From Sphagnum magellanicum (taxonomy: Eukaryota > Streptophyta > Sphagnopsida > Sphagnales > Sphagnaceae), in assembly GCA_021904315.1 (NCBI GenBank), contig CM038907.1, positions 32,247,223-32,311,222 on the forward strand: a DNA stretch of 64,000 nt. Direction: 5' to 3'. Position numbers and translations under genes: made by a program. The notes under the pieces are model-generated. The model did no database searches, had not been told where the DNA came from, and saw only the letters and a program-made list of their open reading frames with translations. Shown piece by piece: positions 18,526 to 44,529 of the stretch. Each line of letters begins with the position of its first letter. Position 1 is the first letter of the stretch.

Positions 18526-19030
18526 GGGAAGAAGCTTCAACAACATGAAGGCAACAAGTAAGAGTGTGAACGCAAGCACAACAACAATGTGAAGGAACTA
18601 GAACCTAAAAAATACTATGCATGAACAATGCAAAAGCAAGAAGAAATAGTAAAAGACAAGTAACAATGACATGAAGGCAACAAATAATGATGTAAAGGCA
18701 AGTAATAATATAAGACAAGAAATACTACTGCAAAGATAATTGCAAAAATAAAAGGCAATATCACGAAGGTAACTAATAATAATATTTAGGTGAAAAACAG
18801 TGATGAGAAGGCAAAAAAAATAGCCAAAGGTAAGAAGCAACTCCACAAAAATAAAAAACAGTGAAATGAAAGTAAGTAACAACATAAAGAAAAAATTCAA
18901 TCTTGCAAATGTAATAAATAATAACATGAAAGCAAGAACTAGTGGCACAAATGCAATAAGTAGCAACATGAAGATAATAAACAATATGAAAAAGTAAGAA
19001 GCAGTGGAAAGGAAAGAAAAAACACAAGAT
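18526..19030. repeat. Degenerate A-rich minisatellite
   Basis: Repeated words of the form 'aacatgaaggcaacaagtaa' recur with variable spacing (about 18,541, 18,669, 18,691, 18,925, 18,967). The minus-strand open frame of 145 codons across it (rich in Leu/Phe) is a by-product of the repeat and is not called a gene. Confidence 0.55.
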
Positions 19031-20900
19031 GACAAAAAAAATAAAATAAAATGGGTGCCAAACGTGAGCTCATGCCCTTTTATAGAGTAGGAACATTATT
19101 CATAGGATTTGAAATAGCCCCATTTGAGTGGCCATTTCAAACTTTCAAACTTTTTCTTTTTTCCCCTAACATAACTTTTAATTCCCAAAAACATTAATGT
19201 CCCTCCAAGGCAATTGCCATTTATTGCTAATTCATGTTGGGGATCCTGGCCACTACACCTACTTAAGGAATTTGAAAAAAAACATTATAGATAACTGGAC
19301 ATATGCCTAGATAATCCCCAAATATGTATATGCATCTGGCTAATTATAATCCATGGATATGAATAATTCAAAATCAGCAGTCAATTTATATCCAGAGGAT
19401 GTGAATAATTCATTTTTTTGAAACAAATGCAGTTTTAAAATATGCATTTATGCATAACCAGGAATTATGCATATAGATAGTCGGCCAACCCTGTACAACC
19501 GAACATCACTAGTTTAAACCTAAGATATGTTCCTGGGAGCTTGTCATCCTTTATCTTGGGATGCTTGCAACTAACCTAATGTAAAAAAAATAAAAATAAA
19601 AACACATCCTACTAGCTTCACCGTTTGTGTTGCTAGGTAGTTGAATTTTAGTCAACGGTCGAGAGCCCGTTTGAACTGTGAATTGATGTGGGGGACACCC
19701 ACTTTGGGGCAGGTCCTCAAAAACACATTCCCACATAACAAAATGGTGGTAGGGCTCACTGAATCGGTGGAGTAGGGGTAGAGTGAACCAACAGCCACTA
19801 GAAGTGCACCACGCAAGATGGACGATAAGTGGTCAGGAAACATTTCGATGAGGTTCTGGTACCCTAGCTAATGACGGTCGATAGCTTGGAAGCTTTTGCG
19901 AATCCACACGTGAGTTATTAGTAAAAGACAGGTGGCAGGCTGTACTGAGCCTTCAAGATTTCAACAGGTACAGTGAAATTGGGTTGTTAGTAAGAGACAA
20001 TGAAGGTGAATAGCTTGGAAGCTGGGTTGTTAGTAAAGGAGAGTTGACAGGCTGTACTGGACCTTCTGGATTGCAGACGGTACAGTGAAAGATTCTGGCT
20101 GGATAGTGTAAAAAATACACTAAAGAAAAGCTGGCCGGTTCTTTTCCAGAAACATAATGCCCTCTGCACGAGCACAAGAACCCTCCATACCATTCAGTAA
20201 TCGTGGCAATTGAAAACTGGCACCCATTATTTGACTGTCGAAAAACGAAGGGAATTAAGTGGTGCTTTACGATCGGGAAGGCCCTGGTGTCAGGGCAGTA
20301 CCCCCTGGATTTCTGGAACCCATTATATGATTGTTGAAAAATGTGGGGGAAAATTACAGTGGTGAAGGCCCTGGTGTCACGACAGGACACGCTGGAAGTT
20401 CCAGTGAATTTGTTTTTGGCGAAAAATCGTCACACTGCCTCTTCTCCTTTTCTGGAGAGAGTGTCGCCACAGGGCTGCCTGTGGGCGACTGGCCAAAACA
20501 TTAAACTGTCGCCATTTGACTTGGGATATTCGCCACCCCTTCTACACTGCAGATTTGGAAAAAAAAACCCCGCAGGCTGGAACCCATTATTTGAAGGTTA
20601 AAAACGCGAACGATAGAGAGAGTCACCCACCATTGCACCATGTGCACTGGATGCAAATCTATCACACCTTTTGTGTGCGGATTTGAATTTCGAGCACGTG
20701 AAACCAGCAGCCACGTAAAATTCGTGCGTGTTCTTATCGTGGTCAATCGGCAATACTCTCAATAGTAGCCGTCTATCGTACCATGATTCCTACCTGATAG
20801 CATATTAAGGCTTCGAACGGAAATGCAGTTGCACAATCTGCTCATTGCCACAAAATATTTGGAAGGCTTTCCAGGACTATCTTAATCTAGGACGACATCA
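19031..20900. other. Upstream region of MTPSL-1 with duplicated modules
   Basis: Base composition becomes more balanced than in the left part of the window. Within about 19.88-20.6 kb there are direct duplications: one module carries 'atagcttggaagc' and 'caggctgtactg' (19,878-19,980 and 20,009-20,092), another 'aacccattat' and 'gaaggccctggtgtca' (about 20,220-20,295 and 20,318-20,380, with a third partial copy near 20,580). A GC-rich hairpin, gtcgccacagg/cctgtgggcgac, lies at 20,463-20,489. This could be promoter DNA of MTPSL-1, but no TATA box could be chosen with confidence. Confidence 0.4.
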
Positions 20901-23900
20901 ATGGAGGCACTACAGCATGGAACTTCTATGGTCGGTGCACCTTCCTTGGTGTGCGCCAACCACAGGAACCTACGACGGGCAGTGCAGTTGGACAACTCCT
21001 CGTGGCAAGCTTTTCAATTGAAAGCATGTGGCGGATCTAAGCTCCGCATGAGGGCGTCAAGTTCAAGTGCAAAATCTTCAGCGGTTTTGGCTATGAGTAA
21101 CTTTCATGCCCAAAGCTTGCAGGTACACTGAATTCCTTTGAACGTGGGACCATATTCCAACAGATAAACACCATTTTGTGTAAGACTACATTATTGCAAC
21201 AAATATTCTTTTGTCCTTCAGCATAAATTATTCATACTATGATGAGGAAGAAAATAACAATATTCAGCAAGTGCTAGTGTCGACTACTTCGCTTATTATT
21301 ATTCCCCTAATTCCCAACCGGCCTTTCCTGTGTAGTCCTTAGCCAATGATTAGGCAGCAGTGTATGATAATTAATCACGACACCATTGAATTGATACTTC
21401 CAAACTCATTTCAACTTGCTCGATCAGTTCATTGCATATCAATAACCCAGGTTCCAACTTTGATATAGTTTTTTTTGACCCGTGCAGCCACTCTATGATG
21501 CTCAAATGGTTCACCACATCTCTAGCAGGTAATATGGTATTTCGAACTATTCCTTTCTGCAGGTTATAATATGATATCATAAAATTTCCAAAATTGTTCT
21601 GCTCTGACGGATTGTGAACCTGTCAAGTTACCCCTCAATATTCACATCATATTGTCCTGCATATAATCACTAATCTGTTCAATTCTTCTTATCCCGCAGC
21701 AAACTGGCGGTCGGACACACACAGGCAGACGACAATATGAAGGTGCAGCAGCGACAGCACGCCGCTCTCGACTTTGTTGTTCCTGATTTCATTCCCCCTT
21801 TCACGTACAAATCGAATCCAGGTGTAGAAGAAGCTAACAAGGCAGCCGTGAAATGGGCGGTGCACCATTTTGAATCTATCCTAAGTCCTGAAAATTTCCA
21901 GAAGCTAATTTATGGGGCGAAATTTCACCATCTGGCTGGGGCAATCTATCCGGACGCCCCAATTTCTCGTCTTGAGTTTGCAATAGAATTTTTGACATGG
22001 CTTTACGTTTTGGACGATGAAAGCCTTCTCCAGCGAAGCTCCGTGCAGGAGTTGGTTCAATTTCAGCTGGAGATCCAGTTTGTAATAATGTCAGGCTTCC
22101 CGCAAGACAAGAGTCTACAAGATAATTTGAAAAAATGTGTCAGCATTAAGCTTGGAAATGAATTCGCTCAGGATTTTGTTGGCAACGTCCTTGCACAAGC
22201 TACTGGGAAGGATCTGCTTGGAACAGGTATGCAAGACTTATAATGTACTATCGAATGCTGAAGCCCCTGCCCATTATGTTGGGTAAGGTGCCAGGCAAGC
22301 CCACTAGGGCGAGCTAGGTGACATACCCAACATAATGGGCAAGGACGAGACCATTCCATGACATTGAGGTCTGGGGTGGCAGATTCAACAACTTAAAGAA
22401 AATTCATGTTGAACAAAAAAATTGGTCAATGTTATGAGTGTATAATCATCACAAGCTGGACCGAAAATAGAGAATGCATTCTCTTTCGATATTTGAAAAT
22501 TAGCAAAACAGGAGTTCTTTTGAGGAGGGGTGGGTGGAAGGCGAAGGGACATCCTAAGAACATGGGAGCAGGGTTTTTTTTTCCCCAAGTTGTGATATTA
22601 AAATTTGGCGAATTTTTCCAAAAATTTAGCAAAATCATTGAATTTGTAGTAGAGGAAAAAATTTACCAAAAACTCCAAATTATTTTGTTGAAAAAAATCA
22701 TTGCACTTGATGAATATTAGGTAATGCTTAAATTCTCTGACTTCACTTTCCCCCCTTTTTTTTCCCTAAATAGAAGTAATCAATTCTTCACACTATTCAT
22801 CAAGTGCAGGTGATCATCCAACAAAAGGTCTGAATGCAGGGATGTGTTGGAACTGTTAGCAGGGTATGGTGACCCCCTATCGCCAATCGCCTCAGCATTT
22901 CAAGACTTGTGGATAAGAGCAATTTCAGTGATGCCAGAAGGGTGGAGCCTTCGATTTGCAAAAGTGCTGCAACGGGATGTGTTCGCCAACTTTTTGGAAT
23001 CACTTAATCTACACCACAACATCTGTCCCTCGGTTTCCGCTTACACCCAAGAAAGGAGAAGCAATGGAATCGTGATACCACCTCTTGTATGTAAACAAGT
23101 ATCTAGACTCTGAGATGCTTTCGTGATTCTTTTGTATCTACAATGATCAATCTCGAACTGGCGTCAGGGTTTGAATTATAGGATATAGCTTACATGATGG
23201 GCCTGGATGGTGTCTAGTCATTCACATGGTTCAAAACTGGTTGATGCCCACAAAAAAGTTAAATAAATTTTATAAAACAACCTAATACATATATACAAAC
23301 GCACACACGCATATAACAATTCAATTAAAAACCGAATTTTGACACAGACTTACATATCCAGTTTTAGCTGATCATATAACTTTCAGTTTCATTCCAGGAA
23401 CTAAATAATATTGATTGGCTTTTCATGGCAGGTTCTCCAAGAGTTTCTCCAAGATGTATTTCTGCCAGACTCTATCTTTGATAGTCTACCGATGCAGCGC
23501 CTCATTGACGCCACAGCGGATGTAATGTGCTGGGACAATGATATTTGGTCATTTCCTAAGGTAATAGTTCTGTTCACTCATCTTTTAATCGACAGTTAAT
23601 ATCCTACCTCCTCATATCTAATGGCTGATATTAAGTGTCACATGTAGAAACACATTGCCAAAACAAGGTTTAATTTCAATAAGCTAATTATTATTACAAC
23701 ACCATGAACTAGTACACCATGTAGGGCACGGTAGAGAACTTAAGAAGTCCCTTAATTAGGGTAATGCCCTGATAGTAGGCCATTACAGCCTGTGAACCAA
23801 AGGTGGACACGAGCTTCCAGGTGTAATACCCTGCTGCCATGGCATTATGTGGTGTAACAAGCAAGGCAGCCCTGCTGCCAAGTTTTGTAATTTCCCACAG

Positions 23901-24746
23901 TACAAAACTGTAATTCATACCATACCAGCAGTAGGCCCTGCAGTACTAGCCTGCCCTGTGTGGGAGCATTTTGCAAAATGGAATGCCTGCCTACGAGGTT
24001 ATTACTATAACTTCAACATACTTGACATTAAGATCTTTTTGTCGGCCTTGCCTACCAAGGCAACGATATTATGTTTGAATTCATTATAGAGTGTAATAGC
24101 TTAATGGATTTTGGCTCCTAGGTAATAGGTCTATTTTTATATGAGGATTTTTGAAAGATGATATTTTGACTTGTGTTGAAAGTTGAAATTAGTTACAGAG
24201 TTAAAATATCTTGAAGGATTTGGTTTCTTTTAGAGGATTTTTTGACTTGATTATATTTTTGCATGGTGAAATATTTGAGTTTCCATAATTCTTCTTTTGC
24301 CTTAAGATACTTTTTAATGTGAATGGCAAGGCCACATTGTGACGCACCCCTTGTTATTTCAGATAATTCCAGCCCTAACAAATTCATGACCAGAATGCAG
24401 TCCAAGGTGCCAGACATGTGTTTTCTTAATATTTCTGATACTAATGTGGAGATGATCTAATCCGGAACAGGAGTTGGCTGCCGGAGAAGAGGCCAATTTG
24501 GTGTTCTTGACAAGTAAAGAAGAAGGGTGCTCCTACAATGAAGCTGCAGAAATTGTGACCAAAATGATGATCAATAAGTGCAAAGAGATGGAACTTGCAG
24601 CTATAGAACTGAGGGAATATTGCAAAATCCAAGAATTAACAACTTCACAAAAGGCTGCCATTGAACATTATATCTCATGTTGCAAGCATGGGGTCAGCGG
24701 AGCACATGCATTTTATTCCCGTTCTTCTCGATACAAGAATAGTTGA
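20901..24746 (+). CDS. Microbial-type terpene synthase-like gene, copy 1 (MTPSL-1), six exons, one unresolved junction
   Basis: Class I terpene synthase of the microbial type, expected to ionise a prenyl diphosphate to a mono- or sesquiterpene. Exons inferred by comparison with MTPSL-2: 20,901-21,122; 21,488-21,528 (41 nt); 21,700-22,226; about 22,840-23,086; 23,432-23,560; 24,471-24,746. All have GT-AG borders except where noted. Exon 1 is Ser/Arg-rich and may be a plastid transit peptide. Exon 3 carries the aspartate-rich motif DDES in WLYVLDDESLL. Exons 5/6 join to give NDIWSFPKE, the NSE metal-binding triad. A C-terminal RY pair lies in SSRYKNS, as in bacterial and fungal synthases. Oddity: exon 3 ends with one base of a codon, so exon 4 should add two. 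The only evident acceptor (AG at 22,838-22,839) leaves the wrong phase and leads to an early stop. The gene may therefore be a recent pseudogene, use an unseen junction, or carry a sequence error. Family call firm; activity uncertain. Confidence 0.85.
22268..22341. repeat. Perfect 18-bp inverted repeat in MTPSL-1 intron 3
   Basis: tgcccattatgttgggta at 22,268-22,285 is the exact reverse complement of 22,324-22,341, with a 38-base loop. It lies about 40 bases inside intron 3. It could be a tiny foldback element or an RNA hairpin in the pre-mRNA. Confidence 0.8.
24090..24365 (+). repeat. Dispersed repeat in MTPSL-1 intron 5 (copy A)
   Basis: This stretch, running from 'ttaatggattttggctcc' to 'tgtgacgcaccccttgtt', is closely matched by 55,165-55,535 in the same orientation. 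Shared blocks include 'aattcttcttttgccttaag' and 'aatggcaaggccaca'. Copy B carries about 105 extra bases in the middle. Copy A ends roughly 100 bases before the exon 6 acceptor. No coding content; probably an old transposon-derived piece. Confidence 0.8.
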
Positions 24747-25187
24747 TGACAAAAATACATGTGCCTACATATAGCAAGTATTATAGTACCTTTACTTTCT
24801 CAAGAATTTTACAATTAAGGGAAAAGTTGTGAAAGTAGTGTGAAATCAATTCCTCGAGGGATATAAACAGAGTCTTTTTAGATTAATTACCTGACATAGA
24901 TTACAGATGCAGAATTGAAAATGCAAGTCGAACTATTCTATTCCTCCAAGTTATTTTGTGTTAAGTCAGATGTTTCTCACTAGCTTGAGCCTTGAACTGG
25001 ATGGATCTATTTGCCTGTTCCAAATAAATTTTGAAATTACTCACTTGCAAATGGTATTGCCAGGCTGTCCACGTTCGAAGTCAACTTTCCAGGATTTGTT
25101 ACTCCTGGCTATTTTATGACATTTGATAAACAATTAACTGTAAAAAATATAGTTAATATATTAAATTGAACATAGGAACAATTCTGC
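24747..25187. other. MTPSL-1 3' flank
   Basis: Sequence from the MTPSL-1 stop codon to the copia LTR. An 'aaataaat' at about 25,023 is a possible polyadenylation signal. Nothing else is recognised. Confidence 0.35.
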
Positions 25188-25414
25188 TGTAGTACAAAAC
25201 CAGTGAAGACCAAGGAGCATAACGTCCCTTAAGTATACAAGAAAATGGCTAAATAAAGAGCAGTAACGGTAGTAAACTAAACTGCGCTTATGTGACCATG
25301 CTTCCGTAATGATGCTTAACTAACACTAAGAAACGATGATCTGATCTTATCTACTGATTAATTTAGAAGGTTGTAGAATTATGTAGAAGCTTAAGCGGAG
25401 TTTGAATGCTAACA
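25188..25414 (-). repeat. 3' LTR of the copia element
   Basis: Read on the minus strand it begins TGTTAGC and ends TACA. It aligns over its full length with 30,686-30,913 at about 80 percent identity by eye. Confidence 0.88.
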
Positions 25415-28400
25415 CCCCCTCTCGCACCATTTTCTACTTAATTGACAAATCTCCTACTCCTACAAGTACTTCAGCGTCTTCTTAGCTATATATTCCAATG
25501 GCTTTTCTAAATTTGCAGAATTTTATTTTTCCTAAAGGTTTTGTGAGTACATCTGCCAATTGGTCTTTTGAAGCAACATGACAGAGTTCAATTTCACCTT
25601 GAAGTAATCATTCACGAATGTAGTGATAATGAACTTCGATATGCTTTGTCCGCACATGGTACACATCACTTCTTGCAATCTTGATACGACTATGATCGTC
25701 ACAGTGAATCTTTACAGACTTGTCTTTTGACTGGCCCATGCTACAAAGCAACAACTTAAGCCATGCAGCTTCTTTCGCTCCTTCAGTAAGAGACCAATAT
25801 TTTGCTTCTATTGAAGAAAGTGCAACAGTCGGTTGTTTGCGCAAACTCCAAGTGACTGGTTCACTCCCCAATTGAAAAATGTATCCTGAGGTCGATTTGC
25901 GATTTTCGGTGTCGCCTGCCAAGTCTGCATCAGTGTACTGTTTGATTTTGGTAGATTCTCCTTCTCGATAATAGATTCCAAATTCAAATGTGCTTTTCAT
26001 ATAAATTGAAAACGTGTTTGGCAGCATCCAAATGCACTTGTCTAGGGTCACTCATGAAACAACTGATTACACTAACAGCATAGACCACATCTGGTCTAGT
26101 ATTGGTTAGAGCAATTTACCAACAATTCTCCGAAACGTCAGCAAATCAACAAGCTTGGAATCTTCTTCCTTCCCCATTTTGAACCCCTCTGGTAAAATCG
26201 TCACTGCAACATTACAATTGATCAACCCAAACTCTTGTAAAATCTCAGAATGTAAGTGTGCTGACACATGAAGATTCCATTTCTGAGTGAAATGAATTCA
26301 ACATTAAAATACAACTGGAGTTTTCCAAGATTTGACACTTCGAAAGTGTGTTCCAATTGTTGTATCAACCATTTGATTTTGGACTCATGGTTGCCGATGA
26401 CCAAAAGGTCATCAACATAGAGTACAAAAATAAGGTCTTTCCCTCTTCCTCAAGGAAATATGTGTTTTGGTCTACTTCATTCCATTTTAAACCAACCTGT
26501 TTTTGTAGGTAATTGTTGATTTTGCCATACCATGTTCTAGCAACTTGGCGAAGGCCGTACAATGCTTACATTAACTTGCACACTTGAAATTCTTTTCTTG
26601 GAATGATGTATCTTTCTGGCTGTATCATGTACACTTCATCAGTAAGAGGCGCATTCAAAAATGCAATTTTCACATACGGTGAAACATTTTCCATCCTTGA
26701 TGTGCCGCAAGTGCCATAACACAACAGATCGTGCCCCACTTGACCATCGAAGCAAAAGTTTCATGGAAATCCACCCCCGCTTTTTGCTCAAACCCGCGAG
26801 CAACTAGACGAGCTTTATACGTATAATTTGATCTATCAGTGGTTAGTTTCAACTTGTAGACCCATTTGGCAAAAATTGCTTTCTTGTCTAGAGGTAAGTG
26901 TACAAGTTACCATGTCTAGTCACGGTGAATAGAATCAAATTCTCCACACATTACTTGACACCATCTAGGGTCAGTGACAATTTCAGCAAAACTAGATGGT
27001 TCTATGGATGTGGGGCAATCAAGTTCTTCTAGATGTAGTGCATAGAGATCTGTGGGCCATGACTATGGTAGGTTAACTGTCGATTTTATGTTTTGAACAT
27101 AATCCTTCATCAAGAAAGGAGCACTCCTTAAACGTGATTTCTGAGGTAGGGATTCTGTAAGTGGTAAGGAATTTGGTGACTGAGAAAATTTTGATGAAGA
27201 TGGTTGTTGTGACAAACTTGATAAAGGAGGTTCAAGAGGTTGTAGCAGGGGTGACTGTGGGAATGATGGAAATGAAACATGAGTTGAAGAACTAGGTTGA
27301 ACTTCACTATCTGACTTGGTAGGATTTGTTGGTATGGTCGTAGATGTGTCAATGAGATCACTCGCCGTGGGTTCTTTGTATGACTACATGTATGGTTCAG
27401 ACCTAGGTTGTGATGTAGTGATTTCACAAGGGTCAAAAATCAAGGGCTCATATTTTTGGACTGTCCAAGATGAGTACTGTTGGTTCATGAATGATTGTTC
27501 ATCAACTCTAACATCTCTACTAACTAGCATCTTGCGTGTCTGAGGTATAAAACAACAATATCCTTTGGTTACCTCATCATAACCAACTAGAACCCCCTCA
27601 CAAGACTTTGGCTCTAATTTATTTTTGTCTTCTCTAACTATGTGCACCCAAAAATGTGTAGATGGGAGAGGTTTGGTTTCTTTCCTGAATAACTCTACTC
27701 TAGTGTATACCCAAGTTTGACCTGGTGGGTGAGTAGTTGTAGAGATATGTTGTGTTCAATCCTTTTGTCCATAAGAATTTTGACACGTTGGAATCCAGCA
27801 TCAAGCATCCAGCATTTTCTCCAACAAAGATCTGTTCATTCATTTTGCAACTTCGTTTTGTTGCAGAGTGCGAGCCTGAATATGTTGCCAATGAATGCCA
27901 TGTTGTTGGAAAAACTCCTTAAAATCTTTAGACAAGTATTTGCCACCACCGTCAATTCTGAGAATTTTTATTCACATGTTGCTTTCATTCTGGACAACAT
28001 CTGCTTGAATATTCTGAACTTCGTCAAAACTTGATTCTTGTGGCGCATGAATTACACCCAAACCTTCTGAGTCTTGTCATCAATGAATGTTATGAAGTAG
28101 CATGAACCTAAAAGAGATTGAACTGGAAAGGGCCCATAAAGGTCAGTACGAACTATTCCTAAAATGTTACTTGCATGGTTTTGACTACTTCTGAATCTTT
28201 CTCAATGTTGTTTTCCTAATTAACATCCCTTACACACTTATGAGACATCTAGAAGTTTAAGTATTTTGGTTGTTAAGACTTTGCTTGTCAAACGATGTAG
28301 ACTCTAGAAGTTAAAGTGAATAAGCCTTCTGTGCCATAGTCTTGATTGATCACGAACTTCTGCTATATTGACTATCGAATTTGGGTTGAGTAGGTCTAAC

Positions 28401-28675
28401 TTATAAAGGCCATTTTTTGGATTTCGATTTGCTTTGAGAATGACCTCTTGAGTGACTCGGTGTTAATTTGATTACATAACATTTATCATCCAAAATTATT
28501 TAATGTCCTTGATTAACTATGGACCTTACTAAAAAAGGCTTTTACAAAAACTAGGTACATATGGAACTTCACAGATGGAGTTTATTTCTCTAGAGGGTGT
28601 TTGAACATTTATAGTGCCTTTTCCAACTACTGGATGAACATGACCACTGGCTAACCTCACTTTTGCAGCATTAAG

Positions 28676-29380
28676 GGGTCAAAATGCTTCAAAGGAATCA
28701 CAAGTGTTACTTTACATTAGTCATCCATGTCCTTTTTCCTCAAAATAACTTTTTCATGTATGAATGATATTTTGAATGATTTTTTTGCAACTTGTTATGA
28801 AAAATGATTAAAATTGCAGATTTTATGTTTCATCTTAAAAAATGATGATAATTTAAAATTATATCAAAAACTGTTAATTTTTTTCAATTGAATTTAATGT
28901 AATATAAACTACAACTTTGTTCAATACATCATGTACATTATACCATATGTACATGTGGTAAAACACTCTTAAAGTTTTGAATTTTCAAATGTACATACTT
29001 TGAATTTTTTAATTTTTAAAATTTCACATTTTTGAAATTCTGAATGTTTTTTTAGTGTGTTTAATAGGTTATTATCATCTCATGTTTTTTACCATCAACG
29101 TACTTCTATTATATGAGTCCTTTGAAAGTCCTTTGTTAAAATGTCATTTTTTAATGATAAAAATTCAACTTTCAAAAATCCTTAATTGAACCAAAATTTT
29201 AAATTGGTTTAAATGGATTTTTAATTTGAGTTTCTTGACATTTATGTGTGTTAAAAAGGAATATTAAAATGTCATGATTACCATGGTTTCAAATGGCAAA
29301 AAATAAATAAATCTTTAATTTTTTATGACAAAATTTGACATCTAATGCCCATTGTGGCTCCTTTGATTATGTTTTGACCC
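28676..29380. mobile_element. MITE with GGGT-type inverted ends, nested in the copia element
   Basis: The left end reads gggtcaaaatgcttcaaagg. The right end, reverse-complemented, reads gggtcaaaacataatcaaag, and both continue into GGA(A/G)(T/C)CACAA. Flanking tetramers are taag and tagg, consistent with a 4-bp target duplication that has changed at one base. The interior is very AT-rich with no coding. It interrupts the copia internal region, so it is younger than that insertion. The ends resemble those of 31,373-31,996 and 47,016-47,592. Confidence 0.75.
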
Positions 29381-30685
29381 TAGGAGCTTTCTCCAAGTTT
29401 TGCACTAAATTTCCTATTCCCATAACATGTTTAGAACTACCTGAATCTATGTACTAGTTCAGGTCACTTTTATTTATGTTAATTGAAGCTATTGCAGCTT
29501 CAAATTGTTTTATAATGGGAGTGTCTTGTTTTTCATTTTCTCCATGTTTTCCATAATAACTTTCCTTTTCCACGATGTTGGCTAATTAACGAAGCTTACT
29601 AGCCTCATGTTTAGTATGTTTATCTATTTCAAGTTTCTAAATGTCAGCTTTTGTTTCACGACAATCTCATAACCAATGGCCAATTTGACCATAATAGTTA
29701 CATGTCTTTTTGTAACACTCATCATTATTGGACTTGAAAGGATGCTGAATACGCACAGAAAAGGTTTCTTTGTCATGCTTGTTGTTGAATCGTAGTCCTC
29801 AATGATGTTTTTCATGAACTAGTTGTCCTACCAATTCTTCAAATGTTGGAGAATGTCCTATAGCAAACAAAGACTAAATGAATGGGTCATAATTATTAGG
29901 AAGAACATTGAGTACAATTTGGATGAGATTGTCATGGTCAATAGTGACTCTAATTCCACCTAACTGAGACAATAAGGACTTGACCTCTTTGAAATAACCT
30001 TCTACACCAATTTCTTCTCCCATTTTAAGTTGGGTTAGCTTATTGCGAAAAAAAAGTTTCCTAGTGACATCTTTCCTAAAAGTTCCCAAACTTCTTGGGA
30101 ATCTTCTTTTTCAATAGAAAAATTCGATAAGAATTTATCTTTCACCAAAAAAATAAATCATTGACAAAGCCTTTTCCGCTTGTATGTTAAATTAGTAAGC
30201 TCAGGTATGATTATGTGTTTAAGATGTACAAATGATATCTTAATTGTAATTACTAATGTGGTAGTTTTGATTGTTGACCACACAAGAGTTGTGAATATTG
30301 GCAATTGATGAACTAGATCCATCATTGCTTATTCCACTCATTAATACCGTGCCAAAAACACTTACTAAAGCCCAAATATTTTAGATGATTTTATGGGGAT
30401 AATATTTTTTTAAAATTTTTTTTCATACTTAAAATCATCCCCAACCCCCAAGAAATGACATAATTTTTAAGGATACTTTTGGGGTACTTTTTGAAGTCCA
30501 AATGATATGACACAAATTGTTTTGAAGAGCTAAAGGGATGCTACAAATACCCATGAAAAAAACTAAAAGTTTCATTTATTTTGAAATGCTAGAAAAAAAT
30601 CAAAAGTTTGAAAGACAATTTTTTTTTTGTGTTTTCAAGTAGAAAACAAGGTAACAAATATGTACAAAATATCTTGCTTCCAGCC

Positions 30686-30913
30686 TATGGTACAAAACTA
30701 GTGAAGAATAAGGAGCATAAACCTCTTTTAAATATACAAAAGAATAGTTAAATAAAGATCAATAGTGACAATGAACTAAACGATGCTTACGTAACCATGC
30801 TTATGTAATGATGCTTAATTAACATTAAGAAACGATGACCTAATCTTATTTACTAATTAATTTAGAAGGTTGTAGAATAATCTAGAAATTTAAGTGGAAT
30901 TTGATAGCTAACA
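30686..30913 (-). repeat. 5' LTR of the copia element
   Basis: Matches 25,188-25,414. On the minus strand it starts TGTTAGCTATC and ends GTACCATA. The primer binding site just inside could not be assigned to a specific tRNA. Confidence 0.85.
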
Positions 30914-31304
30914 TTCATAGCTAATTTACACGTGGATGCATTTTCTCTCAAAACAACTTCCTTTGGTATACCATTGTAAAGTAACAAGCACACTTGACAT
31001 TGGACAATGGCCAAGGTGAACTAGCACCCACATTAGTACTTTCAGTGCCATATTAAAGCCAAAAAATGTTAGATTAGGACTCAGAAACCCTGATTTAATC
31101 TAAGCATGGGATATATCTAATATTTAAAAGTAATCTAATTGGATTCTACAGTCTTTACCATGGTACCAATGTGAGTGTTAGTTCACCCAAAAGAATCATT
31201 AGTGACTATGTATTGCATGTCTACTTATGTCGAACAAGTCATTTATATTAACATACCACATGTAGAGACCTGGTAAGTACATGCCTTACTCAACTTGCTT
31301 ATTT

Positions 31305-32195
31305 TTTGGATATTGTGACATGAAATGTGGGCGGCATAAGGCACTATAACTATTTCAACAAATGGAACAAGAGGGTGAAAGCACATTATGGAGGAGCCAT
31401 TTTAGGCAAGAATTTTTTTTTTTGGGGGGTATATTTTGGTATATTTTGGGGACATTTTTTCTTTGATTTCATTTAACATTTTGATAAACATATAAAATGG
31501 ATTTTGATATAAACTTTAAAGGCCTCGAACATAATTCTTGTCATTTTTCAAATGAAAATAATTTTTCAACAATTTTTTTTTCAACACACTTATGTTCGTT
31601 TGAATGAAAAACTTGTTTAAATGTCTTTTGTGAAATCATATGAGTCAAAAAAATTTATTGTAATTGAAATGGTATAATTAATTCATATTTAATATATGAT
31701 TAAGTATTTCATCAAGTTTTGTAATTATTTGAATCATTTTTAAAGCATATTTGCACTTTGTAATATATCATGACAACATCTAAATTCTCGCAAATGTACT
31801 CTTTAATCATTTAATATTAATCAAAAAATGTAATTTCCTTTTACAATTGCATTATTTAGCTATTGAACTACATTATTTTGAGTATAATTTATGAAAAAAT
31901 ATTTTAATAGTGGCTTGGTGAAAGTTGAAAGTTACACAAATTTGAAAAACACTATTTGTGATTACATCTTTTAGCCACCATAGTGTGCTTTCACCCAAAA
32001 GGTTGTGCAAAAAAAAAAATTTACTTTTGAAGTTGTTCAATGCATGCAAGCATAGCTACACTTGAAAAGGGCAGGTGTGCTCATGAGCATATCATTGAAA
32101 GTACATGAAAATCATATGTATATTTAGTTGGTAGGTTGGTTGACAAGCAAAATAGGGGACTGTGGAGGATGTTTGGAGAGTGTTCAGCATAATGG
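31305..32195 (+). pseudogene. PPR gene relic split by a MITE
   Basis: Two short stretches match the PPR gene at 56.4-58.3 kb at the nucleotide level. The first, 31,305-31,372, corresponds to the end of one repeat and reads as MKCGRHKAL then LFQQMEQE. The second, from about 32,001 to 32,195, covers the start of the next repeat: LEKGRCAHEHIIES near 32,055-32,095, then bases paralleling 'gttgggaacagccttgttga' and 'gaggatgcatggagagtgttc'. Between them sits a MITE (31,373-31,996). Read across the insertion point, the two sides give a natural PPR junction (EQE-VVQ for the usual QQEGVQP). Stops and small changes show it is dead. Flanks upstream of 31,305 and beyond 32,195 are not recognisably PPR. 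Confidence 0.75.
31373..31996. mobile_element. MITE with GGGTG inverted ends, inside the PPR relic
   Basis: The left end gggtgaaagcacattatgg is matched by the reverse complement of the right end, gggtgaaagcacactatgg. Flanking tetramers are aaga and aaaa. The 624-bp interior is AT-rich and non-coding. Its ends share GGGT-AAA-CA and GGAGCCA words with the MITE in the copia element. Confidence 0.85.
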
Positions 32196-33014
32196 GTGTC
32201 TTAATGGTAAGTTGTTTTAATCATGTTTTTTTTTCAAAAGATCTTTCAAATTCTAGGTTTGTCATCCAAGTCATTGAGTCAATTTTGGTGTCCAAATTAT
32301 GATTAGTACATTGATTACATTTTTCCTAACTATACTAGCTAAAATTTATTTATTTATTTATTTATTTATTATAGGAATGCATATCATATATGATTTGTGA
32401 CAGAATTTTGGACATAAGCAAAAAATTTGTCATGAATTTCGATGAGCAATTCATTCTAATTTGAGTTTTGTTTTCACTTACAAAATAATAAAGATTTGTT
32501 GTTTTCATTTATGTTTTTTCTTTAATACTTATGAAATTTGAACTATTTTGTGGGAATTGAAGAAAGTACAAACTAGAGATGAATAAGATGGATAATAAAT
32601 TACATATCATTGTTCTTGGATTGTAAACATAATTTTGCATTTTATTAGTAATGGAATCTCAGATTTTGAAACATTGATGTTGTAGGAGAACAATACTTGA
32701 TCTCTAAATTAAAACTAAGAAAAGGTAGAATAATCCCTTTCCACATATAACATCAAAAGAATGACAACTTGAAGAAAATGTTCAAATGTAAAACAAGGAA
32801 TTCCATTTTTGATCTATGTTAGACCCTAGGAAGATATTGATAATAAATCTTCAAAATGGAATTCACATAACTTTCAATCTTTTTTATTTTGTAAAATTTT
32901 TAAGTAAAGAAAAATACTAGATATATCATATTGCTTATTGATATAAAGGAAATCCTTTGCTATCCTTGCTCACCACTTGGAAACTAAAACTTTGGATACA
33001 CAAGCAATCATCAT
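32196..33014. other. MTPSL-2 3' flank, no gene seen
   Basis: AT-rich sequence with an (attt)n microsatellite at 32,345-32,370. The 3' untranslated region of MTPSL-2 must lie at its right edge. Confidence 0.4.
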
Positions 33015-36000
33015 TTATGCCTGCACCATAATTTCAAAACGAGAACTTTGGGCAGAGAATGTATGTGATCCACGAAGCCAATTTTTGCAAGATGAAATAT
33101 AATTTTCAATGGCAACCTTTTGCATAGTTGTTACTTGATGGGTTTTGCAATACTCCCGTAGTTCTTCAGCAGCAAGTTCCAAATCTTTGCATTTATCCAT
33201 GACCATTTGATTTACAATCTCTCCAGCTTTGTTGTAGGAACACCCTTCTTCTCTACTCAACAAGAACACCAAGTTGGCCGATTCTCCACCCAAGAACTCC
33301 TATTGTGGATTTTTTTCATTCTTCACATTAGTACTTGGAAATATGAAGAAAATATATCTCAAGACTTAAACCTTGGACTCCATTTCCAATCATCAAAATA
33401 TTACTACTAGAATAAGAACATTTTAAAGTTATATCCATGTCCCATAGCTAACCTTAATGATGGTTAGCCATGTACCAACCACACACATGCATCTACCAAC
33501 CTAGTAGCCACCAAGTAGTTCAACTAATTAACCACTTACACATGAGTCACCACTTACATCATTTCCCTACCTACTTGCCATGATACAAGTTATGGTGCAC
33601 TTACATAAGTAGTTATCAAGGTGGAACCTTGGTAGTTTAACCATAAGAGGTTTCCAATGACTCAATCATAGATGCAAGCCAAATCACATAATCCAAACGG
33701 ATTGGGTCCAACTCATTCAAAGTTTTAAAATCTTTGGTGAATGATTAATATGCCACAATTTTGTTCACTTTTTAGACCATAATATATCAAGTAACTATCA
33801 TCCTCTCTAACCTACCACATGTCACATGGATAACAATCCATAAGATCTTCTAGAACACAAAACTATGTTCCATATTATCGTCTAAGGACATAGAAAAATA
33901 TGTTGAATATTTGCCAATTATAGAAAGCCTACACATATAATTAAACATGTCCTAATTTTTTTCTCTCACATGAACATAATATCAAATTAGTGAAAAAAAA
34001 ATTAGTTTATTACCTTTGGAAATGACCAAACATCGTTGTTCCAACATGTTGCATCTATCGTGACGTCACGGAGGTGTTGACAAGGGTCACTATAATATAT
34101 AGTGTCTGGTAGAAATAAATCCTCGAGAAGCTCAATAAGAATCTGCCACCATGAATTGAACCAAATCATTTTCAATTTTAAAAAATCTTCCATGAAATTG
34201 AAAGCTAGAATGATTAATTAGACTAATTGACATGGAAATTATAATTGATCCATAATCAACTTAAACATATATTATGATGTAGACCTTGGATTTGTTGTAA
34301 TGTAAGGACCTAAACAAGATTGTTTGCCTCATTTTATGAATAGGAACCCATCACAAAATGGGAAGCAAACATTGGATTAGAGTTCCCAAAATAATCATGT
34401 TCAAGGTCCTTACAAGGCATTAAAAACTATTTTTAAACATAACAATTAGTTACTAAAATGGACAACTATGATTTTACTTGGAAAAAGGCACCTTATCCAT
34501 AAATTTACTCAAAACAAATAACTTCACACATAGGTACCATAATATGTTGAAATAAAAAAACTATTAAAGATAAAACACCCTTCACATGCACTTAAAGAAA
34601 GAAAATCCTACCAATTCATACATAGCTATAGATTTATAAGAAGGCATTCTAAAATATTTTAGATATTTGGTTTTACGCACAATAGATGGTTCTGTGAATC
34701 CACTTTTTCTCCTTTCGAAGATGTAAACAGAAGTTGATGGAAAGACAATGCCATGGAACAAATGCCATGACTCTGAGAAGTTTGCAAACAAATCTCGCTG
34801 TAATATTCTTCCAAGTCGAAGGCACCACTCCTTTGGCATCAACGCTACTGTTCTTATCCACCAATCTCGAAAAGCTAAGGCCGTTGGACATATCTTCTTG
34901 CCATCAATGTCATAATCTGTTAACAATTCCCACAAGATATCTATCAATTCAAACCATGGTAAAATTTATGCTTTAGTAAGATCTTTTTCTACCTAGTTAT
35001 GAATCATCTTATACATGCTGGTCAACTAGCTTGCTGCAAAAATTGGGTATTAAATAGTGCATTTTTCAATGTAAAGGGTTTCACCATGGACAATGTGATG
35101 GCTTTAAAAACATGATGTTTAATGTTCTCACCATTGATCATGTTTATGACATATGCTTGTTTTTATTTTAATTATTTCTTTTCTTTTTCACAGTAATGTT
35201 CTTTTGGATCCCATATATAAGTTCTTAAGTTATGATTGCCCTACACACCCGTCCCTTAAAAAAAATTATTGTTTTATGATTTTTAAACTTTGAATAAAAA
35301 TGCAATCTCTAGTTTTGGCAACCTTGCAAATTTGGCTAACTCATGCATACCTGTTTCAAGCACATGCTTTTTGACAGCCAATGCAACAACTTTTTCAAAG
35401 AATCCCTTCGTATATTCATCACCAAGCGCATAACCCATGACACATTTTTCCAGATTATCTTGGAGATTATTGTCATGAGGGAAGGTTGACATTATTATAA
35501 CTTGAATCTCCAAGTGCCATCGAACCACATTCTCCAAGGAATGTCTATGCAAATAAACTTCGTCATCACCAGCATACATCCACATCACAAACTCTATTGC
35601 AAGATCAAGACGAGAAACTGGGGCATCCGCATAGGACAATCCAGTTAGAAAAGGAAGATCATTACAAATCACTTGGAAATCTTTAGGACTCGTACTAGAT
35701 TTTAAGTAATGGGTGGCCCATTTCAAGGCTGGTTCTTTAGCTTGTTCCAAGCCAAGATTGAACTTGTGAGGGAAAGGGTGAATGAAATCAGGAACAATGA
35801 AGTCCAAAGCAGCATGTTGTCTTTGCTGCACCTCTATTCCATCAGATGTTGGTGTGGGTCCAACCTCTTGCAAGCTACAAGATAAAAGACATTGAATTAT
35901 GGATTGTTCAATATTTGTTAGGATTTGAACATTATTCACAAGCATAGCTTGATAGCTTTACAATCTATAAATGCAAGATAATTTTGATTTTTTTTTTGTT

Positions 36001-36734
36001 CTATAATAATTTGCAAAAAGGAAATCAATTACAACTACAAAATGACACTTTTACTTAGTAAATAGATATCAACATAGTTGAATTTAATAAGCAACTTCAA
36101 TTACCTAGAATAGCATGGAGCAACCATACGTTTATCATCAATTGCCTGCAAGATAATTAAAAAATGTTGAAATTAGTTGGGCTAATGATTTATAATGAAT
36201 TCATCAAACAAGTTGAAATGGATTCAAAAAATATTAATCCAATTCTAGTGTCATTTAATTGATGCATTGTGCGTAGTAATCTTTTCAATCATTTGGTTGA
36301 AAAGTAACCAAAAAAGAGATTAGATTAATAAGAGAGTTATGATTTAACAAAGCAATTGACAGAATTACTCAATGAACATTATAGTCTTTTTCATGATTTA
36401 GGGTGTGTAACATGTCATCCAAAAATAAACATAAATTAATAGTCCTAAACAAATTTTCTTTTTGTTGCAATGGTCCCAAGTTTGAAAAAAAATCATTCAC
36501 CTGTAATTGATGAACATGAGGGAATCTTGTTGCTAAACCCGCATGAAAAAGAGTTGCATTTGGATGAGGAGTTGATCTCATGCAACTTAAGTTGTTCCTA
36601 CATGCTTGCAATTGAAATGCTTGCAATGAGGAATGCATTTTCAACCTTGAAGCTTGTAATAGGTTTTTGTGGTTCAGAATTTTCAATGGGTAGATATCTG
36701 GCACAATCTTGGTGGATATGTCATTGTGTTCCAT
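33015..36734 (-). CDS. Microbial-type terpene synthase-like gene, copy 2 (MTPSL-2), six exons, 490 residues, intact
   Basis: Class I terpene synthase of the microbial type. Exons on the minus strand: 36,734-36,501; 36,145-36,105 (41 nt); 35,874-35,351; 34,940-34,681; 34,142-34,014; 33,299-33,015. All introns are GT-AG and every phase fits (0, 2, 1, 0, 0), giving 1,473 nt and 490 residues without a stop. Motifs: aspartate-rich DDEVY at about residues 195-199 in MWMYAGDDEVYLH, with no third acidic residue at the usual spacing. The NSE triad NDVWSFPKE falls at 389-397, spanning the exon 5/6 junction. The family's C-terminal RY is RF here (about 483-484, QSSRFEIM). The first about 90 residues precede the synthase fold and may target a plastid. 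It is convergent with MTPSL-1, with the same exon lengths for exons 2 and 5. The start was chosen at MEHND because it matches the MTPSL-1 start. Substrate and product cannot be told from sequence. Confidence 0.9.
34302..34413. repeat. Small foldback in MTPSL-2 intron 4
   Basis: gtaaggaccta-aacaagat at 34,302 pairs with the reverse complement of the right end, gtaaggaccttgaacatgat (ending 34,413). The arms continue loosely inward (gtttgcctcattttatga against gtttgcttcccattttgtga). A MITE-like insertion of about 112 bp. No clear target duplication. Confidence 0.6.
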
Positions 36735-37013
36735 GGGTGGAGCTGAACACCAAAAAAAAAAAAAAAGTTTACACATGAATTAGAAACCTCTTTTCAAATC
36801 AAATAGAAATCAAACCTACGATGAAGTGGTCAAGTGCCTATAGATATGGGTTGAAGTAATGACAAAAACTTGGCTCATTACCAATTGGAATGGCATTCTT
36901 GTGGGTACTTGACAATGCAATCCACACTGGAGAAGAACTTTGGCAAGTGATTGTGATTATAAGAGGCAATCTTGTTGCATGGGTACCACAATGTACATTA
37001 AGAAACACACATT
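36735..37013. other. MTPSL-2 upstream region
   Basis: Immediately upstream of the MTPSL-2 start codon on the minus strand. No TATA box or known regulatory motif could be chosen with confidence. Confidence 0.3.
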
Positions 37014-37325
37014 TCATATGATCACTAAGTCATGAATCTTTATAGAGCAACCACATGACAACATAGCTCTTGTAAGGTGATCAATTAATTCATTTCCATC
37101 ACTAGCCAAGCTTGGTGTCACTAGTGAAACAATGTCATTGTTGCACCTTGTAATGACACCTTCGTACAAGAAGAACGAAATTGTAGGCGAGTTGAAGTTG
37201 GTGTCAAAAAATAACTCCTCCCGAGTATTCCCACACCCACTGGATGTATCTCCAAAATAGATGTTTGGGGCTTTCGTTTCCCCAAGATTGGTGTGTAGTT
37301 GTAGAGGAGATGTGCCATTGCTCAG
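37014..37325 (-). CDS. Unrecognised open stretch of 103 codons upstream of MTPSL-2
   Basis: A minus-strand frame is open from just after a stop at 37,326-37,328 to TGA at 37,016-37,014. It has protein-like composition, including the pieces NIYFGDTSSGCGNTREELFF and ISFFLYEGVITRCNNDIVSL. There is no early ATG, so it would have to be an internal exon or a remnant. I do not recognise a family. It lies about 280 bases upstream of MTPSL-2 on the same strand. It could be the decayed end of another gene or chance. Confidence 0.25.
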   Translation of the reverse strand: MSNGTSPLQLHTNLGETKAPNIYFGDTSSGCGNTREELFFDTNFNSPTISFFLYEGVITRCNNDIVSLVTPSLASDGNELIDHLTRAMLSCGCSIKIHDLVII

Positions 37326-37379
37326 TTACAACTCGAACTTCCTATCTTTGAAGAGCTACTTGACAGGGAATGACTATTT

Positions 37380-37445
37380 AAGAAGGGATGAGCAGTTGAG
37401 AGATAATGAGTGCTTGAGAGGTAATGAGCACTTGAGAGAAAATGG
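37380..37445. repeat. Short tandem repeat, about 18-bp period
   Basis: About four copies of a unit like 'gataatgagcacttgaga' give the repeating peptide pattern LR-NE-LR on the plus strand. Confidence 0.6.
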
Positions 37446-37799
37446 GAGCATATTTAACATAAAGTAGACACACCCAAAACCATGTATTGTACCCTATACT
37501 AAGGTCTATACTCTACATCATCTGCCTTAGATGGAAAAATGAGTATTTTATTATGACCTATTACGTCAGCTAAAGCAATTCCTTTGGCACATGTGCCATG
37601 GATTTCCAATAGCATTATTTATCTATATATAAATTGTTCGAAAGACTGAAGTTACTTAAGATACATCACAAAATAGGTTAAAATAACTTAATTTACCAAA
37701 ATAATTCAAGAACTCCAAAAATTTTAATTCCACTTGCATCAATTTTTAAAGGTAGATGTGAATCACAGCATTGACATGTGTTTCGTTAACAGTATTGTC
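37446..37799. other. AT-rich intergenic DNA, nothing recognised
   Basis: No gene or clear repeat between the 18-bp tandem repeat and the array that starts at about 37.8 kb. Confidence 0.35.
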
Positions 37800-38530
37800 C
37801 TTTCTCCATGTATTAATTTTAAGTGCTTTACTTCTTCTTTTACACATTCAACAATGGGCCCATGTTTACGTCGACTGAAAGTCCGACATGGTCAAACATG
37901 ATGTCACTGTATGAAGGGAGATGCAAAACTGCAACATTGCGTGTCTTTGAACAACCATGTTTTTTATTGAATAATTGTGTTGTTTTTAAGTATTCGATAC
38001 ATATATTAATTTAATTTTTTTCATTTCTTCTTCTAGTGCACATTAAACAAATGGCCCACATTTACTTTGACCGACACTGTGAAACTGAGATGTCTAACAT
38101 GATGCCGACATGAAGGCAGAATCAACGTCCCTTGTCTTGGAACAACTATGTTTCTCATTGAGCACATATCTTGTCCTTTTTCAATGTATGAAAAGTGCTT
38201 TACATTCTTCTTATTTTGCACATTTAAGAAAGGGCCCACAGTCCACCTCTGCTTAGAGGGAAAGTTTGACAAATCTAACGTCATGCCAGTGGCCACGTGA
38301 ATGCAGACAAGGAATCGGAATGTTGTGTAATGTTACGTGTGTTTGAGCGTGTGTCTGGTCCGGGTATTGACGTTAAATTAAAAGATAAAAGAAAGATAAA
38401 AGATAAAAGAAAGAGCGACCATGTCTTTCATTGAGTAATTCTCAACTGCTCTTTTTCTGTGCATTAACTTCTTCTTGTGCACACTGACCAAAGGGCCCAC
38501 AGAATCGTAGTTGAGTAACCCATGCTTAAT
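37800..38530. repeat. Diverged tandem array, four units of about 190-260 bp
   Basis: The landmark 'cttcttcttttacacattcaa ... gggccca' recurs near 37,825-37,862, 38,025-38,060, 38,208-38,240 and 38,465-38,502, each followed by related sequence including 'aacaaccatgtttttcattga'-like words. No coding content. Confidence 0.7.
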
Positions 38531-38599
38531 ATTGGGTAATTGATGGTTTCCTCTTTTTGGGTCGTGCCTTTCAAGCTAGTTTCAAATTATTACTTGTAT

Positions 38600-39450
38600 T
38601 CTTATTTTAAGTGTGCTTGGACCGTTGGACGTCATCTATTTCTCACCATAATGTCACTATAAGGTCCAAGTAACTTAACGAATTTTAAGGTGTCATTGGG
38701 TGTCATCTATTTCTCATCATAAGGTCCAACCCACTTTAAAACTTTTTTGTGGGCTTGGATGTCATCTATTTCTTACTGGATGGTCACCACCGACCATCAG
38801 TGTTTTCTTTTTGGGCGAATTTTCAAATTGTGGCAACAGAAATTGATTCCAGTACGAATTCTACTAAGGGTTTCTTTTTAAATATTTTGAAAAGTCGCCA
38901 TTTTTTGAGGGAAAAAAATTAGAAATTAATAGTTTAGACAATGATTTCAAGTAACTCGCCAGACCTACGCAGGATTCCAAAAAACATATGCTGTCCTATC
39001 TCTAGCCAAATTTCGCTCATTCCACTTGCAGATGATTGCACCTACTTGACAAAATTCCACAAAAAGCCCTGGTCACCATAAGGAACAGGCTACTTAGTAC
39101 CCTCTTAAAATATCCTTGGACCACTGGACGTCACCTATTTCTCATCGTAGGGTCATCACACGGTCCAAGCTACTTCACACTTTTTTTTAAGTGTGCGTGG
39201 ATGTCATCTATTTCGCACCACAATGTCACCAATAACAATAAGGTCCAAGCTACTTCACAAAATTTTCAAGTGCGCTCTGACAATCATCTATTTTTCACTG
39301 TGTGCTCGCCAAGATCATAAGGTCCACACTTTTTTAAGGTGCGCTTCGACTTCATCTATTTCTCACCATAAGGTGGTTGACAATAGGGTCCAAGCTACTG
39401 ATCACTTTTCCAGGTCTTTTTGGAAGTCATCTATTTCCCACCATAAAGCC
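38600..39450. repeat. Tandem array around 'gtcatctatttctcaccata'
   Basis: At least eight diverged copies of the core (g)tcatctatttctcaccataaggtc occur near 38,629, 38,697, 38,757, 39,127, 39,200, 39,283, 39,350 and 39,424. They are separated by sequence containing 'ggtccaagctacttcac' and 'tttttaagtgtgc'. Spacing is about 60-85 bp within each cluster, with an unrelated interval at about 38,800-39,050. Confidence 0.8.
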
Positions 39451-39479
39451 TAAATGTGGGGCCACACTTGTAGGTAGCC

Positions 39480-40990: not shown

Positions 40991-41149
40991 GGTTCCACTA
41001 CCATTAAAAAAGAAAAGACAATTACAAGGTGTTCACAAAATGGAATGGAATCATAAAACAACTACCAAAATTTAACACCTAACAAATGTTTCCATTCATC
41101 ATTTTCAACCTAGCACAAGACACGAACAAGCCACTTCCACATAGGAAAC

Positions 41150-44210: not shown

Positions 44211-44529
44211 GTGTTTCAACATGTTATTCATCAACACCATCACCATCACCATCATGAGCTGGAATCTCCATTTCAAACCCAATTTCATGCAAAGGTTACA
44301 CATTGCCAACACTCTAATTGCTATCATATCCTGTAGATGTTGGAAGAATTTCATCAGTGGAACATTGTAGAAGAAGCCATCAAAACAACAAAACCTAGCA
44401 TTATAGTAACAAAAGTAGCAAACCCTTAACATCGTAGTAACAAAAACAAAACGACAACAAGAATGGGATAGGATACATGTTTAGGGTTTAAAGGATATGG
44501 AAAGGGATCGCAGCTCCACAATGACAACA
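44211..44529. other. Intergenic DNA, nothing recognised
   Basis: A short (cac cat)n run at 44,235-44,255. No gene. Confidence 0.35.

What the first reader, a model, noticed from the sequence alone, without database searches (positions are those of the whole stretch)
20901..36734. Inverted, tail-to-tail pair of microbial-type terpene synthase genes with the same six-exon plan
Both genes share the order and phase of exons. Exons 2 (41 nt) and 5 (129 nt) have identical lengths, and exons 3 and 4 differ only by whole codons over the homologous part (527/524 and about 245/260 nt). This shows duplication of a whole intron-bearing gene in inverted orientation. The gap between them is now filled by a copia element and a PPR relic. 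MTPSL genes are known only from non-seed plants, and linked pairs often produce different terpenes.
Basis: partly seen in the sequence, partly recalled or inferred. Interest (0 to 1): 0.7.

Follow-up and report, generated by a model that had tools for sequence, protein, structure and literature searches.

The report
Peat-moss terpene synthase pair, copied repeatedly
Two old, tail-to-tail terpene-making genes of a bacterial type sit side by side in what is most likely a peat moss genome, and the whole block carrying them has been copied to several chromosomes; the genes are of a known kind, their repeated joint copying is the new part.

Summary
The pair is real. Gene A (+, 20901-24743) and gene B (-, 36734-33015) are homologous six-exon genes for single-domain class I terpene synthases (PF19086, E 2e-32 and 4e-23). 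Trees put A nearer other members than B; A+B as sisters is only marginally rejected (p 0.0435, 0.0474). A-B dS is about 1.0, above both published genome-duplication peaks. Copies differ by dS 0.01-0.14. Five of 5 B copies and 4 of 6 A copies are open; selection counts favour function of both. Known kind of gene, unusual copying history, product untested.

The parts
20901..21122 (+). gene A exon 1 (74 codons, Ser/Ala/Arg-rich N-terminus, transit-peptide-like by eye)
   Evidence: 15 amino-acid-changing and 0 silent variable sites among 6 copies
21488..21528 (+). gene A exon 2, 41 nt, phase 0/2
21700..22226 (+). gene A exon 3, 527 nt, carries the Asp-rich motif (LDDESLL)
22863..23086 (+). gene A exon 4, 224 nt, by the acceptor shared across the family
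23432..23560 (+). gene A exon 5, 129 nt, ends in the NSE motif (NDIWSFPK)
24471..24743 (+). gene A exon 6, completes NSE (E) and carries the C-terminal SSRY; stop codon follows
36501..36734 (-). gene B exon 1, 234 nt
36105..36145 (-). gene B exon 2, 41 nt
35351..35874 (-). gene B exon 3, 524 nt, Asp-rich motif (GDDEVYL)
34014..34142 (-). gene B exon 5, 129 nt, NDVWSFPK
33015..33299 (-). gene B exon 6 with stop, 285 nt, SSRF near the end
25331..30333 (-). copia-type retrotransposon remnant between the genes (extent from the 76%/74% match to C12:6.11 Mb; itself carries a short inserted repeat)
27004..28955 (.). stretch present here but missing from the C5, C12 and C15 copies (read as a shared deletion); the permuted C1:21.25 copy lacks nearly the same stretch (26959-28936)
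13355..44000 (.). block shared with C5:34.7-63.7 kb; with C15 and C12 the shared block runs from about 6.8 and 5.8 kb to 48.8 kb of the window (in pieces, 79-94% identity, gaps not counted)
19589..37774 (.). outer limits of the permuted copy at C1:21,244,184-21,260,678 (order there: 28937-37774, then 19589-26958, then 37851-37774 inverted)

Best explanation
A and B are two anciently separated members of a large moss family of microbial-type, single-domain class I terpene synthases that share one six-exon plan. The enzyme most likely binds a prenyl diphosphate through Mg2+ held by the DD and NSE motifs, splits off diphosphate and releases a small terpene; the transit-peptide-like N-terminus suggests plastids. 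Shown here: homology, motifs, exon plan, five linked pair copies, signs of purifying selection. Inferred: substrate chemistry, plastid location, product, species. A and B separated before the two Sphagnum genome duplications, and their tail-to-tail block was later copied as one unit, three of the four collinear copies lying near contig ends, with a fifth copy rearranged. Both genes of the window are open.
For: PF19086 in both proteins; the only other match was TRI5 in A, below its cut-off. Profile match to germacradienol/geosmin synthase, E 3e-29, with DDESLL against DDHFLE, NDIWSFPKE against NDLFSYQRE and SSRF against SSRY. 41-nt exon in 11 of 12 other loci tested; exon-4 acceptor at the same place in 30 of 30 stretches. 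Pair copies on C5, C12, C15 and C1:21. dN/dS in the catalytic part 0.19-0.46 for A (10 pairs of 5 copies) and 0.15-0.40 for B (10 pairs of 5 copies); dS of 5 A copies to the window's B 0.97-1.01. Published WGD Ks peaks 0.406 and 0.643 (PMC9946827, passages). A exons 4-6: 16 silent and 14 replacement variable sites, ratio 0.24, p 1.3e-4.
Against: No transcripts, so neither the 41-nt exon nor the exon-4 acceptor is proven in RNA. The acceptor scores are modest: A 4.1, window B 5.9, against a minimum of 3.9 and median of 13.5 for the 44 other family sites; 2 of 30 stretches (C13:5.57 and C19) score below zero. In A an out-of-frame AG at 22810 scores 4.7 in a similar matrix. Two of 6 A copies are broken (7-nt deletion; stop codon). 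Taken alone, exon 6 of A (3 silent, 7 replacement, p 0.43) and exon 3 of A (10 and 16, p 0.055) show no significant constraint. The third acidic residue of the Asp-rich motif is missing in A and B. No targeting predictor was run.
Confidence: 0.8

Rival explanations
1. Direct inverted tandem duplication of one gene made A and B; the apparent distance comes from fast evolution of B.
For: Tail-to-tail order and identical plan; close B relatives were found only next to A, in 5 of 5 places; B sits on a long branch that could mislead the tree.
Against: Trees place A with other family members; A+B as a clade costs 7.9 and 7.1 log-likelihood units, p-AU 0.0435 and 0.0474. The plan is shared across the family.
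Confidence: 0.25
2. Gene A is decaying and only B works.
For: 2 of 6 full A copies are broken; the C2 fragment has a 1-nt insertion in exon 4; an out-of-frame acceptor at 22810 scores about as well as 22863; exon 6 alone shows no significant constraint.
Against: 4 of 6 A copies, the window's included, are open through all exons; silent changes prevail in pooled exons 4-6 (16 against 14, ratio 0.24, p 1.3e-4); the acceptor used is the one the whole family has.
Confidence: 0.1
3. The pair copies are remnants of whole-genome duplication rather than block copying.
For: Sphagnum has two genome duplications; C1 and C5 are in one ancestral group if the contig numbers follow the published chromosome numbers.
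Against: Copies differ by dS 0.01-0.14, far below the published peaks 0.406 and 0.643; C12 and C15 belong to other ancestral groups under the same assumption.
Confidence: 0.03

Closest known systems
Microbial terpene synthase-like (MTPSL) genes of non-seed plants
   Same: Single alpha domain, PF19086, DD plus NSE motifs, close to bacterial class I synthases; a review lists introns 0-7 and motifs DDx2D, DDx3D and DDx3, and names an MTPSL from Sphagnum lescurii (PMC6779861, passages).
   Different: Five introns, where two papers describe mostly none or one (PMC11579073 for MTPSLs in general, PMC7826640 for eight Selaginella genes; passages); the third acidic residue is missing; repeated joint copying of a two-gene block.
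MTPSL-type isoprene synthases of Polytrichum commune and Leucobryum juniperoideum
   Same: Moss, N-terminal extension of about 110 residues ahead of one catalytic domain (440 aa in P. commune) (PMC13098426, abstract and passages).
   Different: Those have DDxxxD; A and B have DDE followed by no acidic residue at the usual place. No sequence of them was at hand, so kinship and the cavity residues W151/F288 were not compared.
Bacterial germacradienol/geosmin synthase and pentalenene synthase
   Same: Best solved matches (E 3e-29) and another good one (2e-20); motifs of the first align.
   Different: Plant genes with introns and an N-terminal extension; the N-terminal half of the domain matches only weakly (15.7 bits).

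Membership tests
MTPSL | Class I alpha domain of microbial type (PF19086) | tested here: met
   A 112.8 bits, B 82.7 bits, cut-off 23.7
MTPSL | No plant-type beta or gamma domain | tested here: met
   No PF01397 or PF03936 match up to E 0.1 in either protein
MTPSL | Complete Asp-rich motif DDxxD or DDxxxD | tested here: not met
   A DDESLLQ, B DDEVYLH; the third acidic residue is missing. A review allows DDx3 in the family, so this does not exclude membership.
MTPSL | NSE metal-binding motif | tested here: met
   NDIWSFPKE in A, NDVWSFPKE in B; N, D, S and E kept in all 27 rows
MTPSL | Occurs in a non-seed plant | tested here: inconclusive
MTPSL | Groups with named MTPSL groups I-IV in a tree | not testable with these tools
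   No named plant MTPSL sequences were at hand
MTPSL-type isoprene synthase | Uses DMAPP only; aromatic residues close the pocket in the P. commune enzyme | not testable with these tools
   Needs an enzyme assay or the published sequences
Inverted tandem duplicates of one gene | The two copies are each other's nearest relatives | tested here: not met
   p-AU 0.0435 (27 rows) and 0.0474 (22 rows); marginal

The most novel reading that the evidence does not exclude
The A-B pair is a two-enzyme terpene unit kept together by selection: B was found only beside A, both show purifying selection, and blocks carrying them spread between chromosome ends and were even reassembled in a different order, giving Sphagnum a variable dose of one volatile pathway, possibly a source of its isoprene.
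Probability: 0.12. Interest if true: 0.6.

Novelty: new member of a known kind. Interest (0 to 1): 0.33.

Why it matters
Peat mosses emit isoprene (PMC12141778, abstract start in the listing); the term isoprene synthase occurs once in that paper's held text, in the reference list, and I made no exhaustive search for a named Sphagnum gene. This genome holds 41 places matching the microbial-type family by one exon search, some of them broken and the count a lower bound, against 3 plant-type terpene synthase loci. The five pair copies give a dated series of joint duplications of two diverged enzymes that can be tested by expression and assay.

Tried and rejected
A first tree was built with gene A exon 3 translated in the wrong frame; it was discarded and redone. 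Reading the shared plan as proof of A-to-B duplication was rejected. An insertion in the window at 27004-28955 was considered; a shared deletion in C5, C12 and C15 fits better, because the copia copy at C12:6.11 Mb carries most of that stretch. A circular intermediate for the permuted C1:21.25 copy was considered and not adopted: its two halves differ in identity to the window (97.2-99.7% and 95.9-97.9% per 750 bases; 98.9% and 95-95.9% by BLAST) and a 78-bp inverted piece sits at one junction, so two events or gene conversion are as likely. Genome duplication as the source of the copies was rejected on dS. Bacterial relatives: one scan of prokaryote contigs confirmed 1 of 28 candidates, a Streptomyces locus at 29%, of little use. 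Pfam queries with the exon-3 reading frames alone found nothing. One search ended with a file error after printing its selection counts; the part that failed was rerun.
Full report
WHAT IS THERE. The window is G000:C1:32,247,223-32,311,222 of a genome of 438,994,042 bases in 31 contigs. Gene A has exons at 20901-21122, 21488-21528, 21700-22226, 22863-23086, 23432-23560 and 24471-24743 on the plus strand. Gene B has exons at 36734-36501, 36145-36105, 35874-35351, 34916-34681, 34142-34014 and 33299-33015 on the minus strand.

EXON 4. Of 13 AG sites tested in A between 22630 and 22863 only two, 22860 and 22863, give an open frame. At first I took this for a damaged splice site. The check shows otherwise. 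Three more rows have an AG three bases on, not scored. The inner sites score 4.1 in A and 5.9 in the window's B; 44 other family acceptors range from 3.9 with a median of 13.5. So these are modest but shared sites, and the more distant members, which lack the outer AG, point the same way. Exon 4 is then 224 nt in A and 236 nt in B, A has 472 residues and B 482. In A an out-of-frame AG at 22810 scored 4.7 in a similar matrix and cannot be excluded without RNA.

WHAT THE PROTEINS ARE. Both match Terpene_syn_C_2 (PF19086): B 82.7 bits, A 112.8 bits, cut-off 23.7; A also touches TRI5 at 13.2 bits, below its cut-off of 25.2; no plant-type terpene synthase domain appears up to E 0.1 (B was given with the longer exon 4). 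A profile of 5 family rows finds bacterial germacradienol/geosmin synthase at E 3e-29 and pentalenene synthase at E 2e-20 among solved structures. In the alignment to the first, DDESLL faces DDHFLE, NDIWSFPKE faces NDLFSYQRE, and the terminal SSRF faces SSRY. The third acidic residue of the Asp-rich motif is missing in A and B; two more distant family rows have DDVVD. A review lists DDx3 as one of the motifs of this gene class, introns 0-7, and names an MTPSL of the moss Sphagnum lescurii (PMC6779861, passages). So the genes are of a known kind in a genus already known to have it. The N-terminal hundred residues before the catalytic domain resemble the arrangement of the Polytrichum commune isoprene synthase (transit peptide 1-113, domain 114-440; PMC13098426, passages). 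No targeting program was run; plastid location is inference.

WHICH ORGANISM. Its size equals the published Sphagnum divinum assembly (439 Mb, 20 chromosomes; PMC9946827, passages; table in PMC13120521, passage). I take it as Sphagnum divinum, at about 0.85. The held main text of that genome paper has no word beginning with terpen.

THE FAMILY. A search with B exon 3 gave 41 places: 25 at 138 bits or more, 16 at 88 bits or less. Of the 25, 5 are B copies, 6 are A copies and 14 are other genes. I tested exon 2 in 12 of those 14 (the two left out are inverted copies of two others): 11 have 41 nt between AG and GT at the right place, the C19 gene has 38 nt. Exon 1 was recognised in 8 of these 12. 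The plan is therefore old and widespread in the family and cannot show that A and B are direct duplicates. Plant-type terpene synthase domains occur at 3 loci, all on C3 (6 matches), the same loci that led the PF19086 list.

TREES. Of 34 sequence stretches held, 27 had matches to all of exons 3-6 and went into the tree; 7 were dropped (four incomplete, three plant-type on C3). A groups with the C1:5.8, C4, C19, C13 and C2 genes (support 82/82), B on a long separate branch. Forcing A and B together costs 7.9 log-likelihood units, p-AU 0.0435. With 22 rows, leaving out two distant rows, two identical ones and the broken C1:21 A copy, the result is the same (support 85/86; 7.1 units, p 0.0474). 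This is marginal, and the tool warns about long branches. The rows hold a few probably intronic codons at the start of exon 4.

THE PAIR IS REPEATED. Collinear tail-to-tail copies lie on C5 (A 43,074-46,898; B 56,413-52,638), C12 (B 20,920,300-20,924,076; A 20,934,411-20,930,586) and C15 (A 14,889,315-14,893,147; B 14,903,424-14,899,652). Lone A genes lie on C14 (1,025,477-1,021,646) and, as a fragment, on C2 near 138 kb; on C14 the match to the window ends 90 bases past exon 6, with no further match of 60 bases or more down to C14:1,015,001. Flanking DNA is shared too: with C15 in pieces over C15:14,873,503-14,916,308, with C12 over 20,907,234-20,948,470, with C5 over 34,730-63,707, mostly 79-94% identical. 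Searches scored only the best 39-40 candidates each, so the limits, that of C5 above all, are lower bounds. C5, C12 and C15 share the loss of window 27004-28955, and their A copies group together (94/98; 91/91); the two C1 copies of B form a pair apart from the three others (95/100; 98/100). Four of 6 A copies and 5 of 5 B copies are open; the C1:21 A copy has a 7-nt deletion in exon 3 and the C12 A copy a stop codon there.

THE PERMUTED COPY. C1:21,244,184-21,260,678 carries window 28937-37774, then 19589-26958, then 78 bases of 37851-37774 inverted. There the genes stand head to head. The A half matches the window at 97.2-99.7% per 750 bases, the B half (from 30418) at 95.9-97.9%.

AGE AND SELECTION. 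Nei-Gojobori dS of 5 A copies to the window's B is 0.97-1.01. Between copies it is 0.013-0.059 for A (10 pairs of 5; the C1:21 copy left out because its frame is broken) and 0.027-0.141 for B (10 pairs of 5). Published Ks peaks of the two Sphagnum genome duplications are 0.406 and 0.643 (PMC9946827, passages); methods differ, so only the order counts. In the catalytic part dN/dS is 0.19-0.46 (A) and 0.15-0.40 (B); over the whole coding sequence it is 0.20-0.72 (A) and 0.17-0.39 (B). Variable sites by a plain binomial test: B exons 3-6, 5 copies, 49 silent and 40 replacement, ratio 0.22, p 2e-12. A exons 4-6, 6 copies with the broken ones, 16 and 14, ratio 0.24, p 1.3e-4; split up, exon 4 has 6 and 4 (p 0.014), exon 5 has 7 and 3 (p 0.001), exon 6 has 3 and 7 (p 0.43). 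A exon 3, 4 copies of full length, 10 and 16, ratio 0.45, p 0.055. A exon 1, 6 copies, 0 and 15, p 0.03, so relaxed or fast evolving.

PLACE ON CHROMOSOMES. Three of the 4 collinear copies lie within 100 kb of a contig end (C1, C5, C12; contig lengths). The last 2 kb of C1 and of C12 each hold 7 TTTAGGG and no CCCTAAA, that of C15 none of either; the C5 and C2 starts read N. The C15 and C14 copies are 3.3 Mb and 1.0 Mb from an end. So near-terminal exchange is likely for some copies, not for all. Which element or repair process moved the blocks is not known.

VERDICT. The new points are the five linked copies, the permuted copy, the corrected exon 4 and the signs of selection on both genes. 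A search for Sphagnum with MTPSL in the held papers gave 2 papers, of which I read passages of one. I saw no description of this pair in the titles and abstract starts listed, nor in the passages read; that is not proof that none is in print.

Noticed in passing
G000:C13:22,127,567-22,132,816 and 22,157,829-22,163,078; C13:22,191,334-22,196,568 and 22,223,864-22,229,098: Two pairs of family genes on C13 are inverted copies with 100% DNA identity over at least 5,250 bp and 3,841 bp (as far as the held stretches reach on at least one side): very recent inverted duplications, or assembly errors.
   Followed up: partly
window 56390-58268 (+): A PPR gene with E, E+ and DYW deaminase domains, split over three reading frames, with a 301-bp internal tandem repeat.
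   Followed up: partly
window 55336-55535; intron 5 of the A copies on C1:21, C5, C12, C14 and C15: A repeat of about 204 bp (84-86% identity) at 55.3-55.5 kb recurs in intron 5 of these A copies; likely a short mobile repeat.
   Followed up: no
G000:C3:1,707,307; 1,847,755; 9,782,843: The three loci with a plant-type terpene synthase C-terminal domain (PF03936), all on C3.
   Followed up: no
window 28937-28960: A near-palindrome (a full one in the copy at C1:21,244,184) lies where the permuted copy starts, and within 20 bp of the end of the stretch missing from C5, C12 and C15.
   Followed up: no
window 6640-7942: Array of 41- and 60-bp tandem repeats.
   Followed up: no
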